Origin: Pedobacter rhodius | GTDB lineage: Bacteria; Bacteroidota; Bacteroidia; Sphingobacteriales; Sphingobacteriaceae | NCBI RefSeq assembly: GCF_027213645.1 | Contig: NZ_JAPWGL010000002.1 | Span: 496,001 to 560,000 of the forward strand | DNA: 64,000 nt | Direction of reading: 5' to 3' | Notes under the pieces: model-generated | Told to the model about the DNA's origin: nothing | The model's database searches: none | Seen by the model: the letters and a program-made list of their open reading frames with translations, nothing else | Position numbers and translations under genes: made by a program | Shown here: positions 373-24,049 of the stretch, piece by piece | Layout of the letters: the number at the start of each line of letters is the position of its first letter | Numbering within the stretch: the stretch's first letter is position 1

Positions 373-1257
373 ATGAGAACCCAAAACACAATTTCGAAGG
401 ATAATAATCCTCTGGATAATTTAGATCAGTGGGAAGATGATTTATTAGTCCGCTACCCTGACCCGTCAAATATAAATACCGATAAAAAAGAAGAACAGTT
501 CCGGAATTACGAAGAAACTGAAAAAGATAGCGTTAAAGAATTTTATCGCCTAAACCATAAGTATCAGACTTACGATTTCGTAAAACAGAAAAAAGCAGAT
601 TATTTGAAGTTTGATAAAAGTGAAATGCCAATCTGGAGTGCATTTGATTTCTTAAATAAACTGGTAGATGATTCCGATCCGGATACCGATCTCGACCAGA
701 TGCAGCATTTATTGCAAACATCAGAAGCCATCAGAAACGACGGACACCCGGATTGGATGGTTTTGGTTGGCTTAATTCACGATATGGGCAAAGTACTCTG
801 CCTGTTTGGCGAACCTCAGTGGGCGGTTGTAGGCGATACATTTCCTGTTGGATGTGCTTATTCAGATAAGATTGTTTATCCTGAGTTTTTTAAAGACAAC
901 CCCGACTATCAAAATGAAACGTATCAGACAAAACTTGGTGTGTACACCCAAAACTGCGGGCTTGATAATGTAGATATGTCGTGGGGACATGATGAATATG
1001 TCTACCATATGATGAAACCCTATATACCCGAACCAGGTTTATACATGCTTCGTTACCATTCTTTTTATTCGCAGCACCGGGAAAATGCATATGATCATTT
1101 AATGAATGAAAAAGACCATGAGCTATTTAAATGGGTTAGGTTATTTAATCCTTATGATCTTTATTCTAAAAACCCTAATCAAAAAAGCTGGGCAGAATTA
1201 AAGCCTTATTATGAAGCACTCGTAGCCAAATATTTGCCTGCAAACATTAAATTTTAA
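373..1257 (+). CDS. Inositol oxygenase (myo-inositol -> D-glucuronate)
   Basis: This is a 294-residue protein of the MIOX family, a di-iron enzyme that oxidises free myo-inositol with O2 to D-glucuronate in the cytoplasm. All six iron ligands known for the family are visible in order: H112, H136-D137 (LIHDMGK), H206 (WGHDEYVY), H229 (RYHSFY) and D262 (NPYDLYSK). The length is normal for the family and there is no signal peptide. MIOX is best known from eukaryotes and is unusual as the first gene of a SusC/SusD locus. Motifs A and B lie upstream, and the SusC gene starts 65 bases downstream, so co-transcription is likely. Enzymes that would use glucuronate are not in the window. Confidence 0.95.
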
Positions 1258-1299
1258 AAATTTTAACTAAATATTTTATAACCAAATAAATAAACAATT

Positions 1300-1326
1300 A
1301 TGAACCTAACTCTACAAACATTATGA
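1300..1326 (+). other. Possible 8-codon upstream ORF overlapping the SusC start
   Basis: An ATG at 1300 opens a short frame encoding MNLTLQTL. Its TGA stop overlaps the SusC ATG as ATGA (1323-1326). Such stop-start overlaps allow translational coupling. No strong Shine-Dalgarno sequence is present and the frame could be accidental. Confidence 0.25.
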
Positions 1327-4355: not shown

Positions 4356-4385
4356 GCGGATTATCACTTATAAAAAATTAAAAAG

Positions 4386-5984
4386 ATGAAAAATCTTATA
4401 AAATACACCTTAGCTGCATTTGTTTGCAGCATGGGTTTTTCTTCCTGCCAAAAGCTTGATGTTGAAGTAAAAACACAGCTTACGCCAGAAAATTTTCCAC
4501 AAACAGAAGCGCATTTTGTACAACTTGCCGGTCAAACGTACAGCCAGTTCAGACAAAGTTATGCGGTGGAGTATTTCTTTATGCAATCCATCAGTACGGA
4601 TGAATCCATCATGCCGGCCCGCGGAGGTAACTGGTACGATGGCGGCCGTTATGAGCAGCATGAAAAGCATACCTGGGATAAGGATAACGCTCACATTAGT
4701 GGCGTTTGGAACTGGCTCTCTACGACCATAAGTAAATGTAACCAGAGTTTAAGTTTAATAGATGTTGCACAGGAATCGCCTGCCAAAAGAACAGCAGTAG
4801 CAGAAGTGCGTACCATGCGGGCAATATGCCTTTACCTGATGATGGATTTATGGGGAAACGTACCTATTGTATCTAAATTCGGTGATGTTACGCCGCCGGA
4901 AACCAAATCGCGCAGTGAAGTATTCAATTTTATAGAAACAGAAGTTAAAGAGTCATTACCAAACCTGAATCCGGCAACCGGAATTTCAACCTACGGCCGG
5001 CCAAATAAATACACAGGATATGCTTTATTAGCAAAAATGTATTTAAACGCCGAAGTATATATCGGAACGTCACGTTATAATGATGCTGTTGCCATGTGCG
5101 ATGCCATTATGACGGCAAGCGGCAGTCCGTACAGCTTGGAAAGCGATTACCGCAAAATGTTTTTTATCGATAATGGTCCTCAAACCAAAGAATTTATTTT
5201 TGCCATCCCTTACGATCCGGGCTATACAAACGGTTATATGTTCTATGCCCGTTATTCTTTACCGCGTTCATTACAGGCAAAATTCAGTCTTAAGCATACA
5301 CCAAGTGCGCCGATGAGTACACTACCTGAATACTATGCAAACTTTAATGATCCGAACGACAAACGTAACGCACAATGGATAAAAGGTTTACAGTTCGATA
5401 ATGCCGGTAAACCGGTAATGGTTTCGACAACAAAAAAAGGTTACGATCAGTTTTATACTGGTTCTGACGGATCTGCTCCCCTTACCTATCAAGTGGATAT
5501 TACACCGAACGTTACACTTCGCGATGCGACCCGTCCGTTTGATGCGGGTAATGATGAAATTGCATGGAACATGGGTTACCGTAACAACAAGTTTTATTGC
5601 GACAGTACTTCAGCAAACCGAAATCAGAACAATGATGTTCCGGTATTCAGGTATTCGGATATATTGCTGATGAAGGCAGAAGCCATTCTTCGAGGCGCAA
5701 CACCAACTCAGGGTCAGACAGCATTGTCATTGGTAAACCAGTTACGTGCGGTACGTACTACATCTCCTGCGTGGACAAGCGTGACCTTAGAAGATTTGTA
5801 TAAGGAACGTTGCCGTGAAATGGCCTGGGAATGCTGGCACCGTAACGATATGATCCGTTTCGGTAAGTTTGAAGGTACCTGGGGTTTTAAAACCGATGCA
5901 CAAACTTTCCATCGTTTATTCCCTATTCCGGCTTCGGCAATTATTTTAAATCCAAAATTAAAGCAAAATCCGGGATATAATTAA
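4386..5984 (+). CDS. SusD/RagB-family glycan-binding outer-membrane lipoprotein
   Basis: This 532-residue surface lipoprotein caps the preceding SusC barrel. A short signal peptide ends in a lipobox (GFSSC, Cys21). The body has the SusD organisation: helical TPR-like segments (VRTMRAICLYLMMDLWGNVPIV near residues 140-160; YTGYALLAKMYLNAEVY), the late conserved segment VFRYSDILLMKAEAILRG, and a C-terminal RCREMAWECWHRNDMIRFGKF segment. The protein ends LKQNPGYN, the usual SusD ending (NPGY). A strong intrinsic terminator follows at once, so SusC/SusD transcription should mostly stop here. Confidence 0.95.
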   Translation: MKNLIKYTLAAFVCSMGFSSCQKLDVEVKTQLTPENFPQTEAHFVQLAGQTYSQFRQSYAVEYFFMQSISTDESIMPARGGNWYDGGRYEQHEKHTWDKDNAHISGVWNWLSTTISKCNQSLSLIDVAQESPAKRTAVAEVRTMRAICLYLMMDLWGNVPIVSKFGDVTPPETKSRSEVFNFIETEVKESLPNLNPATGISTYGRPNKYTGYALLAKMYLNAEVYIGTSRYNDAVAMCDAIMTASGSPYSLESDYRKMFFIDNGPQTKEFIFAIPYDPGYTNGYMFYARYSLPRSLQAKFSLKHTPSAPMSTLPEYYANFNDPNDKRNAQWIKGLQFDNAGKPVMVSTTKKGYDQFYTGSDGSAPLTYQVDITPNVTLRDATRPFDAGNDEIAWNMGYRNNKFYCDSTSANRNQNNDVPVFRYSDILLMKAEAILRGATPTQGQTALSLVNQLRAVRTTSPAWTSVTLEDLYKERCREMAWECWHRNDMIRFGKFEGTWGFKTDAQTFHRLFPIPASAIILNPKLKQNPGYN

Positions 5985-6004
5985 CAATCTCAATTCAGAA
6001 TAAA

Positions 6005-6050
6005 AACTAAAAGCTCCTGCTTAACTTCAGGGGCTTTTAGTTCTTTTTAA
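6005..6050 (+). terminator. Intrinsic terminator after SusD
   Basis: A 15-bp stem (AACTAAAAGCTCCTG at 6005-6019 with its partner at 6028-6042, one G-U pair) has an 8-base loop and is followed by CTTTTTAA. It separates the MIOX-SusCD unit from the phosphatase-GH89 unit. Confidence 0.85.
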
Positions 6051-6081
6051 TACCTTGCATGTTCAAATTATAGCCACTTAG

Positions 6082-7065
6082 ATGAACAAATACTTACTTT
6101 TATTATTTTATTTTAATGCTTTCTTGGTTACCGCAAATGCTCAGGTTATTTTAAGAGACTCTTTAACCAATAAGGCAAAAACAAAAACGTTAATTAGACA
6201 GGATGCTGCCCTCAATTTTATCGCTATGGGCGATTGGGGCAGAAACGGTGCCGACCACCAGAAACCTGTTGCCTTGCAAATGGGTAAGACCGCTACAGAT
6301 GTTAAAGCACAATTCATTATATCCACTGGTGATAACTTTTACCCGAGTGGCGTAATCAGTGAAAATGACCCGCTTTTCAGATATTCCTATGAAGATATTT
6401 ATACGGCATTTTCATTACAATGGGATTGGTATGTTGTATTGGGCAACCACGACTATAAATCAAATCCTGACGCTGAAGTGGCCTACTCTAAAATTAGCCG
6501 TAGGTGGAAAATGCCGGCACGTTATTATTCAAAAAAGTTTGCCATAAATGGCGATGTGAATCAGCAGGTATTAATCGCTTTTATCGATACAAATCCATTA
6601 ATTCCCGAATACTATAAAAATACCGAATACGGACCAAATGTTAAAGGACAGGACACCACGGCTCAAAAACGCTGGCTTAATAAAACATTGAGCGACACCG
6701 ACCCATCCATTAAATGGAAAATAGTGGTTGGCCATCACCCTATCTATACCGGTGGCGGCCGTACAGAGGCGTATGATACCAAAGCCGTACGTTCATCCTT
6801 AAAATCAACTTTCGATAAATATGGCGTCGATGTTTATTTAACAGGCCATGAACACAGCCTGCAATACATAAAGCCGGAAGGTAAAACCCATTATTTCATT
6901 TCAGGGTCCGCATCAGAAAAAACACCTGTTAAAATGATACCGGATGCCCAGATGGTCGCATCGGAATATGGTTTTATGCTTTTTTCGGTAACTAAAGGGC
7001 AGCTACTGGTGCAAACGATAAACGAAGAGGGTTATATTATTTACAGTACCCTTATCAAAAAATAA
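6082..7065 (+). CDS. Secreted metallophosphatase, purple-acid-phosphatase (ACP5) type
   Basis: This 327-residue calcineurin-like metallophosphoesterase has a signal peptide (MNKYLLLLFYFNAFLVTANAQ), so it is probably periplasmic. The metal-binding motifs are all present: GDWG (about residue 51), GDNFY (about 81), GNHD (about 121), GHHP (about 219) and the final GHEH (about 256). The layout matches tartrate-resistant/purple acid phosphatases, which cleave phosphomonoesters; some plant members act on inositol phosphates. Lying between SusCD and the GH89 gene, it may dephosphorylate an inositol-phosphate product, but the substrate is not shown by sequence. It starts a new transcription unit after the terminator at 6005-6050. 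Confidence 0.85.
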   Translation: MNKYLLLLFYFNAFLVTANAQVILRDSLTNKAKTKTLIRQDAALNFIAMGDWGRNGADHQKPVALQMGKTATDVKAQFIISTGDNFYPSGVISENDPLFRYSYEDIYTAFSLQWDWYVVLGNHDYKSNPDAEVAYSKISRRWKMPARYYSKKFAINGDVNQQVLIAFIDTNPLIPEYYKNTEYGPNVKGQDTTAQKRWLNKTLSDTDPSIKWKIVVGHHPIYTGGGRTEAYDTKAVRSSLKSTFDKYGVDVYLTGHEHSLQYIKPEGKTHYFISGSASEKTPVKMIPDAQMVASEYGFMLFSVTKGQLLVQTINEEGYIIYSTLIKK

Positions 7066-7146
7066 TTTTAGGTTTTATGCCTATTATCCTGATTTAAAAA
7101 TATTTAACACAAAACTCAGGCGCACTCAAGCATCGCATATCATATC

Positions 7147-8367
7147 ATGGCTTTATCCCCGACAGAAAAAGAATCGTTCAAAGCAAACAAAAGACTTCTG
7201 TCTTTAGATGCACTGCGTGGTTTTGATATGTTTTGGATCATCAGCGGAGAACAAATTTTCCACGGGCTGGCTACTGGTGTGATGGCAAAACATTCCCTTA
7301 TCAGAAACCAGTACGACTGGACGATTTCAACTAACGGAAACTTATCATTTTTTGAGCGTCTGTTTATATTAATCAGTAATCAGCTGCACCATTCCCCCTG
7401 GAATGGTTTTACTTTTTATGATTTAATTTTTCCGCTGTTTATATTTATTTCGGGTGTATCGATGCCCTTTTCCTATCAAAAATACATGGCTGCAAAAAAC
7501 AGTAAAGATAATGCATCGAAACAGGTTTATTTTGCTTTGATAAAAAGAACATTGATACTGCTTATACTCGGCATGATAGTGAACGGGTTATTGAAATTTA
7601 ATGGTTATGAGCATACCCGTTTTGCAAGCGTACTCGGACGGATTGCCCTTTCCACATTTTTCGCAGCCTTAATTTACCTTAACTTTTCACTCCCTAAACA
7701 AATTATCTGGTTTGTTTCTATTCTGGGTGGCTATTATCTTATTATGAGGCTGGTGCCTGTTCCTGGTTTTGGAAGTGGTTATTTAACACCCGAGGGCAAT
7801 CTTGCCGCCTTTATCGATCAGATGCTTCTTCCGGGTAAACTGCACAGAATCGTTTATGATCCTGAGGGATTGCTCAGTACCATTCCCGCAATTGCTTCTG
7901 CATTATCAGGTGTGTTTACAGGTTCCTTTTTAATTTCAACCGCCCAAAAACTAACACCTTCAAAAAAAGCTTTTTATTTACTTATCGCCGGATTGGTTTT
8001 ACTCTCGGCAGGACTGCTGTGGAGCTTATTTTTCCCGATTAATAAAAATATGTGGACAAGTTCCTTTGTACTGTTTGCCGGCGGCTGGAGCGTAATTTTA
8101 TTTAGCATATTTTACTATGTGATAGATGTGCGCCATTATGCAAAATGGAGTCTGCCGTTTGTTTGGATAGGAACAAATTCTATCCTGATATATGTTTGCG
8201 CACACGGGCTTTTTAATTTTGAAGCGACTTCACAATTTATTTTCGGAGGGCTTATACAAATAATGCCTTTAACTTTACAACAGGCAATTTTATGGTTTGG
8301 CGTATTGCTCATACAGTTATTCCTATTAAAGTTGCTCTACGATAGGAAGTTATTTTTAAAAATTTAA
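7147..8367 (+). CDS. HGSNAT/NagX-like transmembrane acetyltransferase (DUF5009 type)
   Basis: This is a 406-residue polytopic membrane protein with about ten hydrophobic segments and a basic N-terminus leading into RLLSLDALRGFDMFW, the family's first motif. Residues 82-101 (starting HSPWNG and continuing into FYDLIFPLFIFISG) correspond to the human heparan-alpha-glucosaminide N-acetyltransferase segment containing H-A-S-W-N-G and its active-site histidine, so H82 is the candidate catalytic residue. Family members move acetyl groups from cytosolic acetyl-CoA across the membrane to terminal amino sugars. The gene ends one base before GH89 starts, mirroring the human HGSNAT-NAGLU reaction pair. 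The acceptor (terminal alpha-glucosamine) is inferred. NagX proteins are often found in chitin or GlcNAc loci, which is an alternative role. Confidence 0.8.
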   Translation: MALSPTEKESFKANKRLLSLDALRGFDMFWIISGEQIFHGLATGVMAKHSLIRNQYDWTISTNGNLSFFERLFILISNQLHHSPWNGFTFYDLIFPLFIFISGVSMPFSYQKYMAAKNSKDNASKQVYFALIKRTLILLILGMIVNGLLKFNGYEHTRFASVLGRIALSTFFAALIYLNFSLPKQIIWFVSILGGYYLIMRLVPVPGFGSGYLTPEGNLAAFIDQMLLPGKLHRIVYDPEGLLSTIPAIASALSGVFTGSFLISTAQKLTPSKKAFYLLIAGLVLLSAGLLWSLFFPINKNMWTSSFVLFAGGWSVILFSIFYYVIDVRHYAKWSLPFVWIGTNSILIYVCAHGLFNFEATSQFIFGGLIQIMPLTLQQAILWFGVLLIQLFLLKLLYDRKLFLKI

Positions 8368-8368
8368 A

Positions 8369-14440: not shown

Positions 14441-14476
14441 TACTAATTTCGGAGTTATCGTCATTTCTAAATGATT

Positions 14477-14638: not shown

Positions 14639-14696
14639 TGGTCACGAGTAGCTAAAAAAGAACCACACAAACGGGAGGATAACATTTTAATTAAAT

Positions 14697-14721
14697 AATA
14701 ATCGTATAAATGACGTTTATT
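14697..14721. promoter_or_regulatory. Palindromic regulatory motif A (copy 2), upstream of the GH51 operon
   Basis: AATAATCGT at 14697-14705, ATAAATG as spacer, ACGTTTATT at 14713-14721. Both arms and the 7-base spacing are identical to copy 1 at 105-129. It ends 50 bases before the GH51 ATG, close to where a promoter must lie, which suggests common control of the two units. Confidence 0.6.
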
Positions 14722-14771
14722 ATTTTAAAATTTTTATTTTTACTACACGATTCTTTCCAAATATTATCATT

Positions 14772-16772
14772 ATGAAACCAAATAACACTCCAAATAGTGT
14801 ATTTTACGCCCTCATTATCTGCATTTTAACCGGCATAAGTGCTTTCAATTCCCATGCTCAAACGGCAAAAATAATTACCATAAATACAGATAACTCAATT
14901 GCTAAAGTACAACCGAATATGTGGGGTGTATTTTTTGAAGACATTAATTTTGGCGCCGATGGCGGCGTTTACGCCGAATTATTAAAAAACAGATCTTTCG
15001 AGTTTGCCAAACCATTAATGGGCTGGACAGTGCAGCGACCAAAAGCAAACGAAGGCGAACTACTGGTGGTAAACCGTAAGGAAGAAAATACAACCAATCC
15101 GAGGTACATTCAGGTTAATACCGAAAAAGGAAACTTTGGCCTAAGCAATGAAGGCTTTAAAGGGATTGGCGTAAAGAAGGGGCTTCGTTATGATTTCTCG
15201 GTTATGTACCGCCAGAAAGCGCCAGGCATAAAGCTGCGTCTGCAATTAATATCATCCGATAATAAAATTATTGGAGAAGGAAGTTTAGCCCCGGAAACTT
15301 CAGGAAACGAGTGGAAAAAACAATCTGCAAGCTTTACAGCTAAAGAAACGGATGCTAAAGCAAAATTTACCATACTATTTGATGGAAAGGGACAAATCGA
15401 TTTAGACATGATATCGTTGTTTCCCGGCGATACCTGGAAAAACCGTCCGCAAGGCTTACGTGCAGACATGGTTAAAATGCTTGCCGATATGAAACCTGGC
15501 TTTATACGCTTCCCGGGTGGCTGCATTGTTGAAGGAACTGACCTGGCAAACCGGTACCAGTGGAAAAAAACCATTGGCCCGATTGAAAACAGGCAATTGA
15601 TTATGAACCGCTGGAATGTAGAATTTGCCCATCGCCCCGCACCTGATTATTACCAAAGTTTCGGATTGGGTTTTTTCGAATATTTTCAACTGGCAGAAGA
15701 CATTGGTTCTGATGCGCTTCCGATCTTAAACTGCGGGATGGCCTGCCAGTTCAACACCGGAGAAGTTGCAGCTTTAGATGAGCTTGATCCATACGTTCAG
15801 GATGCGCTTGACCTGATTGAATTTGCAAATGGTGATACCAATACCAAATGGGGGAAAATGCGGGCCGACTTAGGACACCCAAAACCTTTTAATTTAAAAA
15901 TGATGGGCATCGGAAACGAAAACTGGGGTCCGCAATATTTAGAACGACTGGCCATTTTCACTAAATCAATAAAAGCTAAATATCCTGATTTTAAACTCAT
16001 AAACAGTTCAGGGACGGATCCGGAAGGCGATAGATTTAACTTATTAAACACATCACTTAGAAATTCGAAAGCCGACCTTATCGACGAACATTATTATCGT
16101 CCTGCAGATTGGTTCCTTAAAAATGCCGGCCGTTATGACGATTATCCACGAGATGGTTCGAAAGTTTTTGTTGGCGAATATGCGGTTCATGCCGATAGAA
16201 ATGTAATTGGAAGCAATAGAAACAACTGGCAAAGTGCTTTGGCAGCTGCTTCGCTCATGACCGGGCTGGAGCGAAACGCAGATGTGGTTCAAATGGCATC
16301 TTACGCACCGCTTTTTGCCCATATAGATGCCTGGCAATGGGCCCCGGATATGATTTGGGTAGATAACCTGAACACCTACGGAACACCCGATTACTATGTT
16401 CAAAAACTTTTTTCAACCAACAAAGGTACAGATGTAATTGCAGCAAAACTTGACGGCAAAAATATAACCGGTCAGGATGGCTTGTATGCCTCAGCCGTAA
16501 CTGATAAAATTTCAAAAGAGATTATCATTAAAATCTCCAATACGACAGACAAAGCACAAAACATTGATTTCAATTTAGCTGGCAAGCGGAGTTTAAAAAC
16601 GAAAGGCTTTGTAGACGAACTTTCGAGTTCTAATCTAAATCAGCTGAATTCTTTTGAAAATCCTGACGCGATAAGTCCAAAAAGAAATCCCATTATCATT
16701 AAAAATAAAAAACTGGCGCTTACCTTAAAGCCCTACTCTTTCAGCGTAATTAAAATCCCGTTTACCAAATAA
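14772..16772 (+). CDS. GH51 alpha-L-arabinofuranosidase with CBM-like insert
   Basis: This 666-residue exported retaining arabinofuranosidase has a signal peptide ending near NSHAQ. An N-terminal strand (NMWGVFFEDINFGADGGVYAELLKNRSFE) typical of GH51 is followed by a jelly-roll, CBM4_9-like segment (about 75-215), a (beta/alpha)8 domain and a C-terminal beta-domain. The acid/base is E383 (IGNENWGP) and the nucleophile E469 (FVGEYAVHA). It would release terminal arabinofuranose from arabinan or arabinogalactan side chains. The next GH51 gene follows with no gap. Confidence 0.93.
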   Translation: MKPNNTPNSVFYALIICILTGISAFNSHAQTAKIITINTDNSIAKVQPNMWGVFFEDINFGADGGVYAELLKNRSFEFAKPLMGWTVQRPKANEGELLVVNRKEENTTNPRYIQVNTEKGNFGLSNEGFKGIGVKKGLRYDFSVMYRQKAPGIKLRLQLISSDNKIIGEGSLAPETSGNEWKKQSASFTAKETDAKAKFTILFDGKGQIDLDMISLFPGDTWKNRPQGLRADMVKMLADMKPGFIRFPGGCIVEGTDLANRYQWKKTIGPIENRQLIMNRWNVEFAHRPAPDYYQSFGLGFFEYFQLAEDIGSDALPILNCGMACQFNTGEVAALDELDPYVQDALDLIEFANGDTNTKWGKMRADLGHPKPFNLKMMGIGNENWGPQYLERLAIFTKSIKAKYPDFKLINSSGTDPEGDRFNLLNTSLRNSKADLIDEHYYRPADWFLKNAGRYDDYPRDGSKVFVGEYAVHADRNVIGSNRNNWQSALAAASLMTGLERNADVVQMASYAPLFAHIDAWQWAPDMIWVDNLNTYGTPDYYVQKLFSTNKGTDVIAAKLDGKNITGQDGLYASAVTDKISKEIIIKISNTTDKAQNIDFNLAGKRSLKTKGFVDELSSSNLNQLNSFENPDAISPKRNPIIIKNKKLALTLKPYSFSVIKIPFTK

Positions 16773-16778
16773 ATGTTT

Positions 16779-18317
16779 ATGAAAAAAATATGGCTATTCG
16801 TTGGCGCTATATGCTTAACGATTCAAACAAATGCGCAAACCGAGGCAAAATTAACAGTTAAACAAGCTGGTGAGCAGGTAATTAGCAAACATATATACGG
16901 GCATTTTTCTGAACACCTTGGCCGATGTATTTATGATGGTTTCTGGGTTGATGAAAATTCTTCAATTCCTAATAAAGGCCGGATCAGGCTCGATGTAGTT
17001 GATGCACTAAAAAAAATAAACATACCAAACCTGCGTTGGCCGGGCGGTTGCTTTGCCGATGAATACCACTGGAGAGATGGTATAGGCCCGAGAAACCAGC
17101 GACCTAAAATGGTGAACACCAACTGGGGCGGCGTTACGGAAGACAATAGTTTCGGCACACATGAATTTCTGGAACTTTGTAATATGCTAAAATGCGAACC
17201 CTACGTTGCAGGTAACGTTGGTAGTGGTACCGTTGAGGAAATGGCCAAATGGGTTGAATACCTAAACTTTGATGGCGTTAGTCCGATGGCAACCATTCGT
17301 GCGCAAAACGGCCGGGAAAAACCCTGGAAAGTTACTTTCTGGGGCGTTGGAAACGAGAGCTGGGGATGTGGCGGCCATATGACGGCTGATTACTATACCG
17401 ATTTGTATAAAAGGTATGCTACCTACGCCAGGGATTATGCCGGTGCGCCTTTAAAAAGAATTGCCAGCGGCGCAAATGCAGATGATTACAACTGGACAGA
17501 AACCTGTATGAAAAATATTGGCTCGAGAATGTGGGGACTTACGTTGCATTATTACACAATACCAACAGGCAACTGGAAGGCAAAAGGCTCCGCAACACAA
17601 TTCGATGAGGAACAATATTTCAGCACCATGAAAAACTGCTTAAAAATGGAAGAACTCGTAACAAAACATTCGGCCATAATGGATAAGTACGATCCAAAGA
17701 AAAAAGTCGCCCTTGTAGTAGATGAATGGGGTATTTGGACAGATGTAGAACCCGGAACAAATCCAGGTTTCCTTTACCAGCAGAGCAGCCTCCGGGATGC
17801 ACTTATCGCCGGTACAACCTTAAATATTTTCAATAACCATTCCGACAGGGTAAAAATGGCTAATCTCGCGCAAACGGTAAACGTATTGCAGGCACTTGTT
17901 TTAACTGAAAAAGACAAAATGGTCTTAACCCCTACTTATCACATTTTCGATTTATATAAAGTTCACCAGGATGCCAAATACCTGCCGATAACATTTGCCA
18001 GTCCTGAATACACGGTTGGAAATGATAAAATTCCGGCGCTGAATGTATCCGCTTCTCAGGATTCTACTGGCGCTATTCACATTTCATTAGTAAATTTAGA
18101 CCCTAAAAATAAAATTTCATTAAGTACAGATTTAGAAGGTTTAAAGTGGAAAACAGTAACTGGTCAGATATTGACATCTTCGAAACTTACAGATATAAAT
18201 ACCTTTTCCAGCCCGGATAAAATTCATAATTCAAAGTTTTCTGGCGCAAAAAAATCAGGCAATCTGCTAAAAGTAGAATTACCATCACAATCCGTTGTTG
18301 TACTGGAATTAAAATAA
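16779..18317 (+). CDS. GH51 alpha-L-arabinofuranosidase, compact form
   Basis: This is a second, shorter GH51 enzyme without the carbohydrate-binding insert. Translation could begin at ATG 16773, touching the previous stop, but ATG 16779 gives the standard signal peptide [20 protein letters not shown] and 512 residues, and is preferred. The family start [17 protein letters not shown] and the motif [19 protein letters not shown] are present. From the 16779 start the acid/base is E193 ([10 protein letters not shown]) and the nucleophile E316 (VDEWGIW). Two GH51 forms side by side suggest different arabinofuranosyl linkages in one substrate. Confidence 0.93.
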
Positions 18318-18320
18318 AAC

Positions 18321-20255
18321 ATGATAAATAGATATTTTTTACTGCTGATACCGGCGATCCTGGTTTCATCACAACTCACACAGGCGCAGACAAAATTTGA
18401 TATTTCAAGTCCGGATAAAACAATCACGGCTGAGGTCTCGATTAACAAAGGAAATGTATTTTACACCATACGGAAAGGTTCAGAGCAGCTTTTAAAACTT
18501 TCAAACCTTGGTGTTGTCCGGGGAGATGAAGATTTGTCGAAAGGACTTTCTTTACTTTCCGTTTCTAAAAATGAAGTTGTTAAAGATGCTTACATCCTTA
18601 AAAATGCCAAGCGGTTAAATCATAATTATATCGCTAACAAGCAGGTTTTTCACTTAAAAAATTCTTCAGGAAAGAAGATCGATGTTATTTTTCAGGTATC
18701 GGATGACGGTGTAGCCTTTCGATATTATTTCCCGGAAAAAGATGCCAAGCTGAAGAACATTACCGATGAGAAAAGTTCCTTCCACTTTTTTGAGCAAACC
18801 AAAGCCTGGATGCAGCCGATGTCTGTAGCCAAAACTGGTTGGGAAAGTACCAATCCATCTTATGAAGAATATTATCAGAAAGAAATTAATGTCGGAACAC
18901 CCGCACCAACACAAGCGGGTTGGGTATACCCTGCCCTTTTCAAATATAAAGATACCTGGTTACTGGTTTCAGAAACCGGTCTTGATGAAAATTATTGCGC
19001 TACCCGTTTGGAACAAAAATCAGCTGATGGAAACTATAAGGTTGGTTTTCCGGATAAGAGGGAGGCTTTTACCGGTCAAAACGTAAATCCTGAGTCTGCA
19101 CTGCCCTGGCTTACACCCTGGCGTATTATTGCTGTAGGCAGTCTCAAAAAGATAACAGAATCAACCTTAGGTACAGATTTAGCGTATCCTGCTAAAGCAA
19201 AAATAAATCCCGATTTGTTTAAAATGGGAAAAGCTTCCTGGAGCTGGATTATGCTGAAAGACAGCTCTATAACCTACAACACGCAAAAAAAATACATCGA
19301 TTTTGCAGCGGAGATGAAGTGGGAATATACGCTTATCGATGTAGACTGGGATACAAAAATTGGTTATGATAAAATGCAGGAATTGGCCGGTTATGCAAAA
19401 CAAAAAAATGTTGGCTTAATATTGTGGTATAATTCTGCCGGCGACTGGAATACGGTAAAATACACACCAAAGAATAAACTGACCACACGCGAAAACCGTT
19501 TAAAGGAGTTTGCAACTTTACAAAAAATGGGCATAAAGGGCATAAAGGTCGATTTTTTTGGTGGCGATGGTCAATCAATGATTAAATATTACCTCGAAAT
19601 TTTTGAAGATGCAGCCAGGTTTAACCTGAGTGTAAACTGCCATGGAGCAACATTACCCAGAGGATGGCAGCGTACCTATCCAAACCTGATGACCATGGAA
19701 TCTATCAAAGGCATGGAGTTTATCACTTTCAAACAAGAGAATGCCGATGAAGAACCATTGCATGCCACTACAATCCCGTTTACAAGGAACGTATTCGACC
19801 CTATGGATTTTACCCCGATGCGTTTATATGAAATCCCTAAAATTGATAAAAAAACGACCAGTGCTTTTGAGCTGGCGCTACCTGTTATTTTCCAATCCGG
19901 AATTCAGCATTTGGCCGAAGCACCTGATGGAATGGAAAGAATGCCATCGTATATTAAAAGTTTTCTTCAAGATTTCCCATCGAGCTGGACAGATACAAAA
20001 CTAATAGATGGTTATCCGGGTAAGTTTGTGGTTATGGCAAGAAAGGCTGGCAACAAATGGTACCTGGCCGGCATAAATGGCGAAGGAAATTCTAAAAAAA
20101 TCGCATTAGATTTATCAAAATATGGAGGTAAAAGCGCAAAAATAATAGAAGATGGTACGGAAAAATTCACTTTTAAACAAAGTGATGCACCACTTAATAC
20201 AACTAAAGAAATCACAATGAAACCTTTCGGAGGATTCGTAATCACAATTGAATAA
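18321..20255 (+). CDS. GH97 glycosidase, probably a retaining alpha-galactosidase type
   Basis: This 644-residue exported protein begins with a signal peptide (cleavage near TQAQ). GH97 order: N-terminal beta-sandwich (about 25-270), catalytic barrel (about 280-560) and C-terminal beta-domain. GH97 contains inverting alpha-glucosidases (SusB) and retaining alpha-galactosidases. The segment IKVDFFGGDG places D411 where the retaining subgroup has its nucleophile, and glutamates at 460 and 466 (ESIKGMEF) are acid/base candidates. The retaining assignment rests on remembered family numbering and is moderately sure. It starts 3 bases after the GH51 stop. Confidence 0.85.
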   Translation: MINRYFLLLIPAILVSSQLTQAQTKFDISSPDKTITAEVSINKGNVFYTIRKGSEQLLKLSNLGVVRGDEDLSKGLSLLSVSKNEVVKDAYILKNAKRLNHNYIANKQVFHLKNSSGKKIDVIFQVSDDGVAFRYYFPEKDAKLKNITDEKSSFHFFEQTKAWMQPMSVAKTGWESTNPSYEEYYQKEINVGTPAPTQAGWVYPALFKYKDTWLLVSETGLDENYCATRLEQKSADGNYKVGFPDKREAFTGQNVNPESALPWLTPWRIIAVGSLKKITESTLGTDLAYPAKAKINPDLFKMGKASWSWIMLKDSSITYNTQKKYIDFAAEMKWEYTLIDVDWDTKIGYDKMQELAGYAKQKNVGLILWYNSAGDWNTVKYTPKNKLTTRENRLKEFATLQKMGIKGIKVDFFGGDGQSMIKYYLEIFEDAARFNLSVNCHGATLPRGWQRTYPNLMTMESIKGMEFITFKQENADEEPLHATTIPFTRNVFDPMDFTPMRLYEIPKIDKKTTSAFELALPVIFQSGIQHLAEAPDGMERMPSYIKSFLQDFPSSWTDTKLIDGYPGKFVVMARKAGNKWYLAGINGEGNSKKIALDLSKYGGKSAKIIEDGTEKFTFKQSDAPLNTTKEITMKPFGGFVITIE

Positions 20256-20265
20256 ACCAATCAAA

Positions 20266-21201
20266 ATGAAAAAAATACTCATTATTTGTACCTTGCTAAT
20301 CAGCATTCTGATGAATGTTCAGGCACAATCAAAAAAAGGAATTTATCTTTTTGCCTATTTCAAAGATAATGGTGAAGATGGATTGCACCTTGCTTACAGT
20401 ACTGATGCTTATAACTGGGCAGCACTTAAAAATGACAAATCATTTCTGACGCCTATGGTAAGTAAGGATAAACTCATGCGAGACCCATGTATTTTAAGAG
20501 GAGCAGATGGTCTTTTTCACATGGTATGGACAGTTAGCTGGAAATCTAACGGTATTGGTTATGCAAGCTCCAAAGATTTAATAAATTGGAGTCCGCAGCA
20601 ATTTCTACCCGTTATGGAAAAGGAACCTGGTGTAGGGAATTCATGGGCGCCGGAAATCACTTTTGATAACAAAACGAAAACCTATATGATTTATTGGTCC
20701 AGTACCATTAAAGGAAAATTCCCGGAGACTTTATTAAAAAAAGAAGAGGGTAATAACAACAGGATTTATTATGTAACCACAAAGGATTTTAAAACCTTTT
20801 CCCCAACACAGTTGCTGTACGAGCCCGGATTTAATGTAATAGATGCCTCAATTGTTCACGATAATGGCAGGTTTGTTATGTTTTTAAAAGATGAAACAAA
20901 GGAACCTGCTCAAAAAAACATCAAAATTGCACATAGTGATAACCTGACAGGACCTTACTCCAAAGCAAGCGAACCGATTACAGGAAACTATTGGGCCGAA
21001 GGGCCAACCTCTTTGAGAATCGGTAAAGAATGGATCGTATATTTTGATAAATATACCGAGCATAAGTACGGCGCAATTAAATCTGAAGATTTAAAAACCT
21101 GGACAGACGTTTCAGATAAAATATCGTTGCCAAAAGGGCTCAGACATGGAACCATCATAACGATAACGAAAAAGGAACTCGAAAAATTACAAAAGCAATA
21201 A
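20266..21201 (+). CDS. GH43-like five-bladed beta-propeller glycosidase
   Basis: The frame is open from a TTG at 20248, but the ATG at 20266 gives a clean signal peptide (MKKILIICTLLISILMNVQAQ) and 311 residues, ten bases after the GH97 stop; it is preferred. Repeated propeller strands are seen (HLAYSTDAYNW, GIGYASSKDLINWS, RIYYVTTKDFKTFS, KIAHSDNLTGPY, YGAIKSEDLKTWTD). Likely active-site elements are MRDPCILRG and NSWAPEITFD. The fold and motifs fit GH43 and related propeller families that act on arabinose or xylose. Exact specificity cannot be read. Confidence 0.75.
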   Translation: MKKILIICTLLISILMNVQAQSKKGIYLFAYFKDNGEDGLHLAYSTDAYNWAALKNDKSFLTPMVSKDKLMRDPCILRGADGLFHMVWTVSWKSNGIGYASSKDLINWSPQQFLPVMEKEPGVGNSWAPEITFDNKTKTYMIYWSSTIKGKFPETLLKKEEGNNNRIYYVTTKDFKTFSPTQLLYEPGFNVIDASIVHDNGRFVMFLKDETKEPAQKNIKIAHSDNLTGPYSKASEPITGNYWAEGPTSLRIGKEWIVYFDKYTEHKYGAIKSEDLKTWTDVSDKISLPKGLRHGTIITITKKELEKLQKQ

Positions 21202-21214
21202 GCCCCTGAAGTTG

Positions 21215-21350
21215 GCTTGCGCCCGTTTGTAACGAGTGTAAATAGCATAACGATTCTTTGCTTGCGCTCGTTTATAACGAGTGCAAAATAGCATGACGAT
21301 TTAATCGTTTTAAACGATGTATTTTTCCAAGCTCGTTATAAAAGAGCTTG
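21215..21350. repeat. 45-bp tandem direct repeat with palindromic cores
   Basis: Two adjacent units (21215-21259 and 21260-21304) share GCTTGCGC(C/T)CGTTT(G/A)TAACGAGTG followed by TAGCAT(A/G)ACGATT. The second contains CTCGTTTATAACGAG, a 6-bp inverted repeat. A related inverted piece, AAGCTC/GAGCTT at 21329-21349, follows. This looks like intergenic palindromic repeat DNA rather than a gene. Confidence 0.6.
21304..21318. promoter_or_regulatory. Second LacI-type palindrome upstream of GH3
   Basis: ATCGTTT-T-AAACGAT is a perfect 7-bp inverted repeat around one base, preceded by TTTA. It contains the AANCGNTT core also seen in motif B and lies about 65 bases before motif B copy 2. It could be an auxiliary operator; it could also belong to the neighbouring repeats. 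Confidence 0.35.
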
Positions 21351-21367
21351 AGCATTAGCCTGTCTGT

Positions 21368-21394
21368 TTTTACTAAATCGTTTACGTAAATAAA
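21368..21394. promoter_or_regulatory. LacI/GalR-type operator motif B (copy 2), GH3 promoter
   Basis: The block TTTTACT followed by AAATCGTTTACGTAAATAAA differs from the MIOX copy (254-280) at one position. Similarity continues downstream (CAACTTTAAAA, then TTTTTAACC just before the coding region). A candidate -7 box AAGCTTTG lies at 21409-21416. GH3 and MIOX therefore appear to share a regulator. Confidence 0.6.
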
Positions 21395-21463
21395 TCTGGA
21401 AAAAAACTAAGCTTTGACACCTCAAAACAGCAACTTTAAAACGTAAAACTGATTTTTAACCAA

Positions 21464-24049
21464 ATGAATTTCAAGCTAAAACTTTTTCTAATCATACCTC
21501 TTTTCTGCCTATTACCATTTTTAGGTTTTGGCCAGCAATTAAATAAGTTTCCATTTAATGATGCAAAATTACCAATCGAAACCAGGTTGCAGGATGTTGT
21601 GAAAAGGTTAACAATTGATGAAAAAATCGGTATGTTGTCAGAAACTTCATCAGCAGTAGAGCGGCTTGGAATTGACAAATACTATTACGGGAATGAAGGC
21701 TTACATGGTGTGATGCGTCCCGGTAAATTTACTGTTTTCCCTCAATCTATCGGCCTGGCTGCTACCTGGAACCCGGCTTTGGTAAATAGCGTTGCAACTG
21801 CAATATCCGATGAAGCCCGCGGCAAATGGAATGAACTGGGAAAAGGGAAAAATCAGAATGCGCCGTTCAGTGACTTACTTACCTTATGGTCGCCTACCAT
21901 AAACATGGCCCGCGACCCAAGATGGGGACGTACCGCCGAAACCTATGGAGAAGACCCATACCTTACTTCACGCTTTGCAGTCGCTTACATTAAAGGTCTG
22001 CAAGGTAATGACCCTAACCACATCAAAGTGGTAGCAACACCCAAACACCTCGCGGCCAATAACGAAGAAAATAACCGTCTTGCTGCAAATTCGATTATTT
22101 CTGAAAAAACTTTAAGAGAATATTACCTTCCGGCCTTTAAAAGTAGTGTTATGGAAGGCAATGCGCAAAGCATCATGTCGGCTTATAATAAAGTGAACTG
22201 GATACCATCAACAGCGAGCAGGTGGTTATTAACCGATGTACTTCGAAAAGAATGGAGATTTGATGGCTATGTGGTGAGCGACTGTGGTGCCGCTTGTAAC
22301 ATATTCAGCAAGCACCAGTTTACCGCATCAATGGAAGAAGCTGCCGCCGCTGCACTTAAAGCCGGTATGGATATGGAATGTGCTGCCGGTTGTAATTTAA
22401 TTAAAGAATATTTAAAATTGGCCTGGCAGAAAAAACTGGTTACGGACGCAGAGATAAACCAGGCAGTAAAAAACGTTTTGAGGGTAAGGTTTCGTCTGGG
22501 GCTGTTTGATAAAACAGGTTCCGGACCATATGATAACATCAGTCCTTCCGTAATCGGAAATGCGGCACATCAGAAACTTGCTTTGGATGCTGCCAAAGAA
22601 AGTATTGTACTTTTAAAGAACGATAAAAACATATTGCCGCTACAGCTTCAAAAGCTAAAATCCATCGCAGTAGTTGGCCATAATGCGGATATTAATGTTT
22701 TTGGCGGCTACAGTGGTGTTCCTTTAAATGCACCTGTAACACCGCTGCAAGGCATAAAAAATCTTGTCGGTAACACGGTGACCATAAACTATGCACCTAC
22801 AAAATTAGATCTGTTCAATGTCGAAATGATTCCTTCCGACGAACTGGTATCTGCAAGCGGGCAAAACGGACTTGATGCAGAATATTTTGACAATAAATTT
22901 TTAGAAGGCACGCCAAAAAAAAGAATCGATGCCCAGGTGAATTTCAACACCAAGGAGAACCCGCCTGACCCGTTTATTCCGGCAGGGAAAAAATCCATCC
23001 GCTGGACCGGTTGGTTGGTACCGGCAAAAAGCGGTGAATATACCTTAGCCGTTAGTTCTGATGATGGTTCACGCACCTGGTTTAATGGCAAAATGGTGAT
23101 AGACAGCTGGAAAGACAGGGGCGAAATATTAGACAGCTTCCGGGTAAAACTGGAAGCCGGCAAAAAATATCCTGTAAAAATTGAGTATTATGATACAGGT
23201 AGCGACGCGGTTTGCCGGTTTTGGTGGAAAACTCCTTTTGCTAAAGAGCGAATTTACACCCAACAAATAGCGGCTGCAAAGAAAAGTGATGTTGTGGTAG
23301 CCGTAATCGGAAGCGGATTGTATAATGAACGGGAAGGCCATGATAAGGAAAGTCTTGAACTTCCCGGTGACCAAATGGCGATGCTGAAAGCCGTTTACCA
23401 GGCTAATCCAAACGTTGTGGTCGTAATGGTTACCGGAAGTCAGCATACGATAGGCTGGATAAAGGAAAATATCCCCGGAATAGTAAACATTTATTTCGGC
23501 GGAGAACAAGCTGGAAATGCCATTGCATCCGCCCTGTTCGGCAAATATAATCCTTCAGGGAAATTACCGCTAACCTATTATGAAAGCCTGGAACGCGTAC
23601 CGGCAATGAACCGGTACGAAATAACTGAAGGGCGAACGTATATGTACTACCCGGGGAAGCCACTTTACGAATTTGGATACGGACTTAGCTATACCACTTT
23701 TAAATATTCGGATTTGCAGGTTAAAAGAATCGCGGAAAATGGAAAAAAATACCTCGCGGTTGAACTTGAAATTGAAAATACCGGAAACATGGATGGTGAA
23801 GAGGTTATACAGTTATACACCAGTTATCCGGATGCAAAACAAGAAAGGCCTTTAGAACAATTAAAGGGTTTTAAAAAAGTATTTGTGGCCAAAGGCAAAA
23901 AAGTAAAAGTAGATTTTAAATTGAATGAGGATGATATTTCATTCTGGTCTTTTGAGCAAGGCTGGCAAACAGAAAAAGGCAATGTGATGATAAATATTGG
24001 TTCTTCATCGAAAGATATCCGCTTACATTCGGTCGTTAATTTAAAATAA
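21464..24049 (+). CDS. GH3 beta-glycosidase with PA14 insert
   Basis: This is an 861-residue exported GH3 enzyme. After a signal peptide (to about residue 25) come the (alpha/beta)8 domain with nucleophile D273 (VVSDCGAACN), then the alpha/beta sandwich interrupted by a PA14 domain (about 455-600, with GLDAEYFDNKFLEG, SGEYTLAVSSDDGSR and YPVKIEYYD), and a C-terminal fibronectin-III-like domain (about 750-860). PA14-bearing GH3 enzymes include beta-glucosidases, beta-xylosidases and beta-galactosidases. The sequence alone does not decide which. It has its own promoter with motif B, shared with MIOX, and probably completes breakdown of the same glycan. Confidence 0.92.
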   Translation: MNFKLKLFLIIPLFCLLPFLGFGQQLNKFPFNDAKLPIETRLQDVVKRLTIDEKIGMLSETSSAVERLGIDKYYYGNEGLHGVMRPGKFTVFPQSIGLAATWNPALVNSVATAISDEARGKWNELGKGKNQNAPFSDLLTLWSPTINMARDPRWGRTAETYGEDPYLTSRFAVAYIKGLQGNDPNHIKVVATPKHLAANNEENNRLAANSIISEKTLREYYLPAFKSSVMEGNAQSIMSAYNKVNWIPSTASRWLLTDVLRKEWRFDGYVVSDCGAACNIFSKHQFTASMEEAAAAALKAGMDMECAAGCNLIKEYLKLAWQKKLVTDAEINQAVKNVLRVRFRLGLFDKTGSGPYDNISPSVIGNAAHQKLALDAAKESIVLLKNDKNILPLQLQKLKSIAVVGHNADINVFGGYSGVPLNAPVTPLQGIKNLVGNTVTINYAPTKLDLFNVEMIPSDELVSASGQNGLDAEYFDNKFLEGTPKKRIDAQVNFNTKENPPDPFIPAGKKSIRWTGWLVPAKSGEYTLAVSSDDGSRTWFNGKMVIDSWKDRGEILDSFRVKLEAGKKYPVKIEYYDTGSDAVCRFWWKTPFAKERIYTQQIAAAKKSDVVVAVIGSGLYNEREGHDKESLELPGDQMAMLKAVYQANPNVVVVMVTGSQHTIGWIKENIPGIVNIYFGGEQAGNAIASALFGKYNPSGKLPLTYYESLERVPAMNRYEITEGRTYMYYPGKPLYEFGYGLSYTTFKYSDLQVKRIAENGKKYLAVELEIENTGNMDGEEVIQLYTSYPDAKQERPLEQLKGFKKVFVAKGKKVKVDFKLNEDDISFWSFEQGWQTEKGNVMINIGSSSKDIRLHSVVNLK

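What the first reader, a model, noticed from the sequence alone, without database searches (positions are those of the whole stretch)
373..24049. Candidate pathway for a GPI-anchor- or GIPC-type Man-GlcN-inositol-phosphate glycan
One co-oriented locus holds GH92 alpha-mannosidase, an HGSNAT-like glucosamine acetyltransferase, GH89 alpha-GlcNAcase, a secreted purple-acid-type phosphatase and inositol oxygenase, with a SusC/SusD importer. Read in order they would strip mannose, acetylate the exposed alpha-glucosamine, release GlcNAc, remove phosphate and turn inositol into glucuronate. That order mirrors the core of a GPI anchor (Man-GlcN-inositol-P) and also suits plant GIPC head groups (GlcN(Ac)-GlcA-inositol-P). 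The two GH51, the GH97 and the GH43-like enzymes would fit arabinogalactan, which plants carry on GPI-anchored proteins. I know of no described polysaccharide utilisation locus with this set. Enzyme families are seen; the substrate is inferred.
Basis: partly seen in the sequence, partly recalled or inferred. Interest (0 to 1): 0.88.

Follow-up and report, generated by a model that had tools for sequence, protein, structure and literature searches.

The report
Plant sphingolipid head-group feeding locus
A soil bacterium (a Pedobacter relative) carries a conserved, jointly regulated gene set that looks built to take apart the sugar-inositol-phosphate heads of the main plant membrane sphingolipids (GIPCs), a feeding pathway we did not find described; the enzyme families are clear, the substrate is still inferred.

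Summary
The co-oriented locus at 373-24049 encodes inositol oxygenase, SusC/SusD, a TRAP-type purple acid phosphatase, a NagX/HGSNAT-type acetyltransferase, GH89, GH92, two GH51, GH97, GH43 and GH3. Just upstream of the window lie a divergent LacI regulator, an SSF symporter, a second GH28 and mannonate dehydratase UxuA.

The set is not accidental. In 201 genomes of the family, 32 of 50 with MIOX have GH89 within 25 kb. Of 26 MIOX+GH89 segments, 25 carry GH28, 24 NagX and 23 GH92. A LacI-type operator precedes MIOX, SSF and GH3 here, and NagX, GH28 or GH92 in some relatives. A second bacterial family has a similar set with a distant GH89.

The near-constant GH28, a family acting on alpha-linked uronates, discriminates. 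GPI anchors lack uronate; plant GIPC (GlcN(Ac)a1-4GlcAa1-2Ins-P, or Man-GlcA-Ins-P, with outer Gal/Ara) contains every residue. Best reading: a locus for plant GIPC-derived inositol(-phosphate) glycans. GPI is less likely here, but fits a second locus in the same genome (GH89-GH35-NagX-GH92). Activity on GIPC, above all GH28 as alpha-glucuronidase, is untested, and no linked phospholipase was recognised.

The parts
263..277 (+). LacI-type operator ATCGTTTACGTAAAT, about 95 bases before MIOX
   Evidence: one of only two perfect copies in the 4.68-Mb genome (expected 0.025); TTACGTAA palindrome at this place in 31 of 32 Pedobacter-group and 3 of 11 other hand-picked locus-type upstream regions, 0 of 37 remaining MIOX loci
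373..1257 (+). inositol oxygenase (MIOX), no signal peptide seen, presumably cytoplasmic: myo-inositol to D-glucuronate
   Evidence: PF05153 1.9e-108; the six iron ligands of mammalian MIOX (recalled numbering) align with identical residues
1323..4355 (+). SusC-type TonB-dependent importer
   Evidence: Pfam Plug, barrel, CarbopepD_reg_2
4386..5984 (+). SusD-type surface lipoprotein
   Evidence: SusD_RagB, SusD-like_3; lipobox-like motif by simple script
6005..6042 (+). terminator-like hairpin (15 pairs, T-rich tail) between SusD and the enzyme genes
   Evidence: consensus scan only; scan total 26 against 19.0 +/- 5.1 in shuffles, so weak
6082..7065 (+). secreted TRAP-type purple acid phosphatase (candidate inositol-phosphate monoesterase)
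   Evidence: 1qhw 6.8e-38; seven metal ligands of the family (recalled) visible in the alignment; hydrophobic N-terminus; present in 10 of 26 MIOX+GH89 segments
7147..8367 (+). NagX/HGSNAT-type inner-membrane transacetylase (candidate N-acetylation of periplasmic alpha-GlcN ends)
   Evidence: NF046061 325 bits, cut-off 480; HGSNAT 2.4e-17, His82 aligned with His297 (role of His297 from PMC9007349); one base between it and GH89
8369..10588 (+). GH89 alpha-N-acetylglucosaminidase, secreted
   Evidence: NAGLU_N, NAGLU and NAGLU_C domains; both catalytic Glu conserved in 67 of 67 aligned GH89; in a 28-row clade, support 100, of which 23 rows are MIOX-linked in the fetched segment
10606..12126 (+).
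   Evidence: PF00295 6.8e-20; model pLDDT 82, Z 33-36 to GH28 polygalacturonases and galacturonidase 5olp, but also to alginate epimerases; the three Asp kept, the usual His absent
12149..14440 (+). GH92 exo-alpha-mannosidase
   Evidence: PF07971 2.6e-165; a GH92 in 23 of 26 MIOX+GH89 segments
14772..16772 (+). GH51 alpha-L-arabinofuranosidase with CBM_4_9
   Evidence: ASD1_dom, Alpha-L-AF_C
16773..18317 (+). GH51 alpha-L-arabinofuranosidase
   Evidence: Alpha-L-AF_C 1e-50
18321..20255 (+). GH97 (candidate alpha-galactosidase type)
   Evidence: PF10566 1.8e-65; only NCBIfam hit is retaining alpha-galactosidase, 218 bits under its cut-off of 800
20248..21201 (+). GH43-like enzyme (start codon uncertain)
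   Evidence: PF04616 1.4e-14, BT_3657-like_N 3.9e-9
21377..21391 (+). second perfect LacI-type operator, about 72 bases before GH3
   Evidence: a perfect copy at the same distance from GH3 in relative G470
21464..24049 (+). GH3 glycosidase with PA14 insert
   Evidence: PF01915, PF00933, PF07691; tied to the regulon by its operator

Best explanation
A polysaccharide-utilisation-type locus for the soluble inositol(-phosphate) glycans (IPG/IG) of plant GIPC sphingolipids. SusC/SusD import the glycan. GH51, GH43, GH97 and GH3 trim outer Ara/Gal/Glc where present. GH92 takes alpha-Man off Man-GlcA-Ins. NagX acetylates an unacetylated alpha-GlcN end with cytosolic acetyl-CoA, and GH89 then removes alpha-GlcNAc from GlcNAc-a1,4-GlcA. 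One or both GH28 split GlcA from inositol. The phosphatase removes phosphate. The SSF symporter carries inositol in, MIOX oxidises it to glucuronate, and UxaC, a UxuB-like dehydrogenase and UxuA lead to KDG. The divergent LacI controls the set. Shown: gene families, linkage, clade specificity, shared operator sequence. Inferred: each substrate, the order of steps, cellular locations, the binding of LacI to the operator and its ligand. The ceramide is presumably cut off beforehand, by plant or fungal phospholipases or by an unlinked one.
For: Identities. Linkage: MIOX in 50 and GH89 in 55 of 201 family genomes, 41 with both, 32 within 25 kb; in 295 Bacteroidia, 8 of the 12 GH89 genomes have MIOX against 26 of 295 overall. 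Content (35% identity or more): NagX 24, GH28 25, GH92 23, SSF 20 of 26 MIOX+GH89 segments, against 1, 3, 4, 10 of 18 MIOX segments without GH89. GH89 clade of 28 rows, support 100: 23 MIOX-linked in the fetched segment, a 24th (G452) by the positions. Separate assembly in another family (G065, G101: distant GH89, with NagX, both GH28, two GH92, GH51, SSF, MIOX). Operator: 49 matches with up to 2 mismatches in the 26 segments, 45 of them within 300 bases before a gene (MIOX in 18 segments; also SSF, LacI, NagX, GH28, GH92, GH3), against 6 and 2 for the reversed motif. MIOX with SSF and no glycosidase set points to SSF as inositol importer. UxaC present, no IolD over cut-off. Substrate structures: PMC8099651, PMC11496612 (IPGs occur in plants; Botrytis phospholipase C releases them). 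NagX model: PMC9007349. GH89 relatives cleave GlcNAc-a1,4-GlcA: PMC8225759.
Against: No phospholipase C/D or ceramidase-like gene was recognised in the locus; the genome's PF04185 phospholipase C is unlinked. GH28 alpha-glucuronidase activity is not established for the family as far as I know, and the best-scoring models and structures are pectin enzymes. The GH89 clade keeps a Trp (517, 28 of 28 rows) at CpGH89 Trp685, a residue linked to GlcNAc-a1,4-Gal recognition and absent in human NAGLU. The phosphatase is in only 10 of 26 segments, Ara/Gal enzymes in few. NagX-GH89-GH92 without MIOX or GH28 also exists: 6 of 35 GH89 segments without MIOX have a NagX at 30-34% identity. The operator is not exclusive: it also precedes MIOX in 7 segments outside the 26, and a one-mismatch copy precedes a rhamnoside-type PUL.
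Confidence: 0.6

Rival explanations
1. GPI-anchor glycan locus: Man-GlcN-Ins-P from GPI anchors (for example of arabinogalactan proteins) is dismantled by GH92, NagX, GH89, phosphatase and MIOX.
For: GPI core Man-a1,4-GlcN-a1,6-Ins-P with non-acetylated GlcN (PMC11907402, passages) suits GH92, NagX, GH89, MIOX.
Against: GH28 in 25 of 26 MIOX+GH89 segments has no role, as GPI has no uronate. A different locus in the same genome, SusCD-GH89-GH35-NagX-GH92 without GH28 or MIOX (L174), fits GPI better.
Confidence: 0.12
2. Another inositol-containing glycan: fungal GIPC (Man-GlcN-Ins-P-Cer), an actinobacterial lipoglycan, or a plant inositol glycan not yet described.
For: Alpha-Man, alpha-GlcN and inositol also occur in fungal GIPC (recalled; only search listings seen). 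Outer Ara/Gal enzymes vary between genomes.
Against: Fungal GIPC has no uronate, and lipoglycans have no alpha-GlcN, as far as I recall; neither explains GH28 and GH89/NagX together.
Confidence: 0.13
3. A uronate-sensing pectin/arabinogalactan locus into which inositol oxygenase was drawn because both feed the hexuronate pathway; GH89, NagX and phosphatase serve some side chain.
For: GH28 profiles are nearest to rhamnogalacturonidase and polygalacturonase models, all under their cut-offs; UxuA sits beside the locus; a similar operator precedes a rhamnoside PUL.
Against: The conserved core is GH89/NagX/GH28/GH92/SSF, while arabinan/galactan side-chain enzymes are rare in it (GH51 6, GH43 2 of 26). 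No pectate lyase, GH105, GH78 or GH2 among the Pfam hits of window genes 373-26590. Does not explain NagX and GH89 with MIOX in two different layouts.
Confidence: 0.1
4. Phytate or free-inositol use plus an unrelated neighbouring glycan locus.
For: MIOX occurs with SSF but without the glycosidase set in many genomes; the phosphatase could act on inositol phosphates; the operator also precedes MIOX in segments without GH89.
Against: Tight spacing of NagX-GH89-GH28-GH92, conserved linkage and operators before NagX, GH28, GH92 and GH3; PDB matches of the phosphatase are TRAP/plant-type purple acid phosphatases and a related parasite protein.
Confidence: 0.05

Closest known systems
Bacteroidota polysaccharide utilisation loci (SusC/SusD type)
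   Same: SusC/SusD pair followed by co-oriented secreted glycosidases, local transcriptional regulator
   Different: Substrate is predicted to be a glycolipid head group, not a polysaccharide; includes inositol oxygenase, a phosphatase and a transmembrane transacetylase; LacI-type regulator beside it
Lysosomal heparan sulfate pathway (HGSNAT then NAGLU)
   Same: Membrane transacetylase plus GH89 acting in turn on alpha-GlcN ends; heparan and plant GIPC share the GlcN(Ac)-a1,4-GlcA motif
   Different: Bacterial periplasm (inferred); no sulfatases; inositol-phosphate end; GH28 in place of a beta-glucuronidase
Bt3590 GH89 of Bacteroides thetaiotaomicron (PMC8225759, passages)
   Same: GH89 that removes GlcNAc-a1,4 from GlcA in heparosan oligosaccharides
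   Different: Window GH89 keeps a Trp at CpGH89 Trp685; linked to MIOX; no glycosaminoglycan enzymes beside it. No sequence comparison with Bt3590 was made
Botrytis cinerea GIPC-phospholipase C (PMC11496612, passages and Discussion)
   Same: Acts on the same proposed lipid and yields inositol phosphate glycans
   Different: Cuts the lipid off; does not dismantle the glycan. It would supply the substrate of the present locus
NagX of glucosamine users (PMC9007349, passages)
   Same: Proposed transfer of acetyl from cytosolic acetyl-CoA to periplasmic glucosamine; catalytic His kept
   Different: Here directly followed by GH89, so the acceptor is probably a glycan end, not free glucosamine (inferred)

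Membership tests
Polysaccharide utilisation locus | SusC and SusD pair with co-oriented glycosidases | tested here: met
   SusC in 26 of 26 MIOX+GH89 segments
Inositol oxygenase | PF05153 over cut-off and iron ligands conserved | tested here: met
   362 bits, cut-off 25; ligands read from the alignment with 2huo (numbering recalled)
GH89 | NAGLU domains and the two catalytic Glu | tested here: met
   Glu303 and Glu434 conserved in 67 of 67
NagX_SO_3504 equivalog (NCBIfam) | score over the curated cut-off of 480 bits | tested here: not met
   325 bits; called NagX/HGSNAT-type only, not a member of the equivalog
HGSNAT/NagX superfamily | acetyl-carrying catalytic His | tested here: met
   His82 aligned to HGSNAT His297
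TRAP-type purple acid phosphatase | metal-ligand set with the Tyr | tested here: met
   alignment with 1qhw; ligand list recalled
GH28 | PF00295 over cut-off and GH28-like beta-helix | tested here: met
   71.8 bits, cut-off 22.9; Z 33-36 to polygalacturonases and galacturonidase, alginate epimerases at similar Z
GH28 | active-site His of the GHG motif (recalled) | tested here: not met
   replaced in both locus GH28 subfamilies; the three Asp kept. Divergent member by profile and fold; activity unproven
GIPC-degrading system | enzyme families for alpha-GlcN(Ac), alpha-uronate, alpha-Man, phosphate and inositol together | tested here: met
   (families only)
GIPC-degrading system | activity on GlcN(Ac)/Man-GlcA-Ins(-P) | not testable with these tools
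   needs enzyme assays
GIPC-degrading system | own lipid-releasing phospholipase or ceramidase in the locus | tested here: not met
   none recognised among Pfam hits of window genes 373-26590 or of the 8 L002 proteins scanned; PF04185 phospholipase C elsewhere in the genome
GPI-degrading system | enzyme set without a need for uronidases | tested here: not met
   GH28 in 25 of 26 MIOX+GH89 segments
Heparan/heparosan locus | sulfatases, uronate lyases or GH88 | tested here: not met
   none among the Pfam hits of window genes 373-26590 and of L002

The most novel reading that the evidence does not exclude
A previously undescribed class of PUL that feeds on a glycosphingolipid head: plant GIPC. 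It uses a lysosome-like HGSNAT/NAGLU step in the periplasm, GH28 subfamilies turned into alpha-glucuronidases for GlcA-a1,2-inositol, and inositol oxygenase. In other lineages a uronate-lyase-like protein (c62) would take part instead of, or beside, the hydrolases.
Probability: 0.45. Interest if true: 0.85.

Novelty: new variant of a known kind. Interest (0 to 1): 0.72.

Why it matters
GIPCs are called major sphingolipids on Earth (PMC11907402, passage) and up to 40% of plant sphingolipids (PMC8099651, abstract in the listing). How soil and root bacteria recycle their heads was not found in print: searches returned no paper, one search listed 18 of 18 and searches listed only the top 20 of 623, 10 of 303 and 10 of 398, none of them on a GIPC utilisation locus or on MIOX in a PUL; the library holds open-licence PMC papers only. 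If true, the locus names concrete enzymes for dismantling GIPC heads, useful for analysing these poorly resolved glycans. It would connect plant or fungal phospholipase release of inositol phosphate glycans to bacterial feeding, and make two GH28 subfamilies and a lyase-like family testable for new specificities.

Tried and rejected
GPI as main substrate: set lower because of GH28. Heparan: no accessory enzymes. Phytate or free inositol plus a chance neighbour: set low by linkage and operators. Residue test of GH89 specificity: the Trp at CpGH89 Trp685 points away from the human-like pocket, so it does not help the GIPC reading (equivalence counted by eye from the alignment with an offset of 25). 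GH92 linkage specificity: not attempted, no reliable motif at hand. Structure of c62: pLDDT 49 from 3 sequences; its best Foldseek matches are uronate lyases (exoHep, GAG lyases, PL15/PL17; TM 0.26-0.40), but GH127 and epimerase structures with a similar helical part are also in the top 26, so it is a lead only. Promoter scan: fewer sites than in shuffles, uninformative. Operator with up to 2 mismatches genome-wide: 35 hits against 53 for the reversed control, uninformative; only the two perfect copies and the enrichment inside the locus segments count. Alignment A1 of GH28 fragments was not used. Literature searches on bacterial MIOX and on GH92 gave nothing pertinent in the rows listed.

Limits of counts: one search's group 'GH89 without MIOX' (35) includes G452, whose MIOX was cut off by the fetched stretch. 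Segments for the comparison were picked by hand: 44 segments hold MIOX, 36 of the 50 MIOX genomes of the family sample and 8 others of the class sample; 35 segments hold GH89 only. Counts use 35% identity or more; at 25% or more, 9 of the 35 have NagX, 9 GH92 and 2 GH28. In some searches the 43 locus-type regions were picked by hand (31 of 32 Pedobacter-group and 3 of 11 others have the palindrome), and some of the 37 control loci (L034, L052, L057, L066, L073, L081) also have SusC. Fisher values ignore relatedness. see at most 10-kb flanks.


Full report
Observation. The window is bases 496001-560000 of contig 4 of a 4.68-Mb genome. Its nearest named MIOX relatives are Pedobacter species and one Sphingobacteriaceae MAG, 90-92% identical, so I call it Pedobacter-like. 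The + strand genes at 373-24049 are MIOX, SusC, SusD, a TRAP-type purple acid phosphatase, a NagX/HGSNAT-type protein, GH89, GH28, GH92, GH51, GH51, GH97, GH43 and GH3. Spacing is 81 bases PAP to NagX, then 1, 17 and 22 bases in NagX-GH89-GH28-GH92, and 0, 3 and -8 in GH51-GH51-GH97-GH43. Gaps of 331 and 262 bases precede GH51a and GH3.

Beyond the window. Upstream, on the other strand, lie LacI, an SSF symporter, a second GH28, another LacI and UxuA (L002). UxuA is mannonate dehydratase over its curated cut-off. UxaC sits elsewhere in the genome, beside a mannitol-dehydrogenase-type oxidoreductase and an altronate-dehydratase-type enzyme. No IolD passes its cut-off. So glucuronate made by MIOX has a route, and MIOX is probably the inositol route.

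Is the set more than chance? In a sample of 201 genomes of the family, MIOX passes its cut-off in 50 and GH89 in 55; 41 have both, and in 32 of the 50 MIOX genomes a GH89 lies within 25 kb. In 295 Bacteroidia genomes MIOX passes in 26 and GH89 in 12; 8 have both (Fisher 5e-7, ignoring relatedness). I fetched stretches around MIOX and around other GH89 genes. Of 26 segments with MIOX and GH89, SusC is in 26, GH28 in 25, NagX in 24, GH92 in 23, LacI in 22, SSF in 20, PAP in 10, GH51 in 6. G410, where GH89 lies 23 kb off, lacks GH28, NagX and GH92; G450 lacks NagX and GH92, G114 lacks GH92. Of 18 MIOX segments without GH89 the numbers are GH28 3, NagX 1, GH92 4, LacI 11, SSF 10. Of 35 GH89 segments without MIOX: GH28 1, NagX 3, GH92 2, SSF 0 (one of the 35, G452, is misfiled; at a looser identity of 25% NagX is in 9, GH92 in 9 and GH28 in 2). 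One relative, G470, has the layout from UxuA to GH3 except the second LacI. Among the 80 named MIOX loci, NagX is in 38, within 10-kb flanks; beyond Pedobacter it is in Desertivirga, four Mucilaginibacter and two MAGs.

Evolution of GH89. In a tree of 67 GH89 proteins one clade of 28 rows with support 100 holds 23 of the 28 MIOX-linked rows. A 24th, G452, is linked by the positions. The four remaining rows are G421x, G110x and G446x, whose genomes have MIOX elsewhere, and G361x, in whose genome one search lists no MIOX. The five other MIOX-linked rows are two from another bacterial family (G065, G101, on a deep separate branch), two of a second type (G450_19, G374_01) and G410_25. The G065/G101 loci hold MIOX, NagX, both GH28 types, two GH92, GH51, SSF and SusCD in another order with a distant GH89. 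That looks like a second assembly of the same function (inference).

Regulation. Upstream of MIOX a palindrome TTACGTAA is found in 34 of 43 hand-picked locus-type regions (31 of 32 Pedobacter-group, 3 of 11 others) and in 0 of 37 other MIOX loci. The 15-base form ATCGTTTACGTAAAT has just two perfect copies in the whole genome, before MIOX and before GH3 (0.025 expected). A two-mismatch copy lies 74 bases before SSF. In the 26 MIOX+GH89 segments there are 49 matches with up to two mismatches, 45 within 300 bases before a gene, against 6 and 2 for the reversed motif. Their targets include MIOX (18 segments), SSF, LacI, NagX (G431, G396), GH28 (G440, G459, G374), GH92 (G406) and GH3 (here and G470). 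Against exclusivity: it also precedes MIOX in 7 segments outside the 26, a one-mismatch copy precedes SusC of a GH106/GH95/GH31/rhamnosidase PUL, and two-mismatch hits genome-wide are fewer than in the control.

Which glycan? The constant part asks for alpha-GlcN or GlcNAc (NagX, GH89), alpha-uronate (GH28), alpha-Man (GH92) and inositol (MIOX, SSF), with phosphate in some genomes. The tobacco GIPC core is GlcNAc(a1-4)GlcA(a1-2)inositol-1-O-phosphorylceramide; Arabidopsis leaf has Man-GlcA-IPC; [quoted passage not shown] PMC9113257, passages). This accounts for every conserved enzyme and for the outer GH51/GH43/GH97. The GPI core Man-GlcN-Ins-P (PMC11907402, passages) leaves GH28 without work. 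GlcNAc-a1,4-GlcA is also the motif of heparan; GH89 enzymes of Bacteroides and Clostridium cleave it with very different efficiency (PMC8225759, passages).

Weak points. The GH28 proteins keep the three catalytic Asp but lack the usual His, and their nearest named models are pectin exo-enzymes, all under their cut-offs. The step GlcA-inositol is therefore the least supported. The GH89 clade has, in 28 of 28 rows, a Trp at CpGH89 Trp685, which in that enzyme goes with GlcNAc-a1,4-Gal. No lipid-cutting enzyme was recognised in the locus; a PF04185 phospholipase C is elsewhere. Soluble inositol phosphate glycans do occur in plants, and Botrytis releases them with a GIPC-phospholipase C; an inositol glycan without phosphate also accumulates (PMC11496612, passages and Discussion). 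This could explain why the phosphatase is optional (inference).

A lead from relatives. A family without Pfam or PDB sequence match (c62, about 598 aa) follows SusD in MIOX loci of L067 and L081, lies close by in L073, and occurs in G065 and G110. Its model is poor (pLDDT 49); Foldseek's best matches are uronate lyases (exoHep, GAG lyases, PL17, hyaluronate lyase), with GH127 and epimerase structures also in the list. In L067, L073 and L081 no NagX, GH89 or GH28 was seen in the 10-kb flanks. A lyase acting on 4-substituted GlcA would be an alternative way into the same glycan (speculation).

A second locus in the same genome. L174 (contig 1, 567-587 kb) holds SusCD, GH89, GH35, NagX (33% identical to the window's) and GH92, without GH28 or MIOX. 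The same gene order is in G280, G386, G479 and G421. It fits a GPI glycan with beta-Gal branches better than the finding's own locus does (speculation).

Literature. Searches returned no paper; the rows listed (the last three capped) include none on a GIPC utilisation locus or MIOX in a PUL; only open-licence PMC papers are searched. NagX as transmembrane transacetylase is from PMC9007349 (passages).

Verdict. Gene families and functional unity are well supported. Plant GIPC-derived inositol(-phosphate) glycan is the best substrate reading at about 0.6; GPI for this locus about 0.12.

Noticed in passing
L174:4559-18879 (G000 contig 1, 571.6-585.9 kb): Second locus SusC-SusD-GH89-GH35-NagX-GH92(+LamG) without MIOX or GH28; same order in four other genomes; candidate for a GPI-type glycan.
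   Followed up: partly
L081:15731-17509, L067:15763-17559, L073:17078-18871; also in G065, G110: Family c62, no Pfam or PDB sequence match, in MIOX loci next to SusD or the phosphatase; poor model resembles uronate lyases. In G065 a DUF4861 gene is beside it; the gene after it in L073 was not scanned.
   Followed up: partly
L203:1366-3747 (G000 contig 5, about 537 kb): Phospholipase C (PF04185 + PLipase_C_C), unlinked; possible lipid-releasing enzyme.
   Followed up: partly
L205:9196-12433 (G000 contig 1): One-mismatch copy of the LacI operator before the SusC of a GH106/GH95/GH31/rhamnosidase locus.
   Followed up: yes
L073:15942-17020: The purple acid phosphatase gene is split over two overlapping frames in this record.
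   Followed up: no
29792-32077 (-): Second GH92 in the window, beside a response regulator/histidine kinase pair and a PAP2 phosphatase; not shown to belong to the locus.
   Followed up: no
45293-52164 (-): Separate SusC / SusD-like_2 / BT_3987-like / thioredoxin-like cluster, unrelated to the finding by content.
   Followed up: no
L101:9280-11196 and L129:3644-4546: Glucosamine-6-phosphate deaminase-PIG-L fusion inside the locus of G321; a ROK-family gene lies in that of G065: possible GlcNAc catabolism near GH89.
   Followed up: partly
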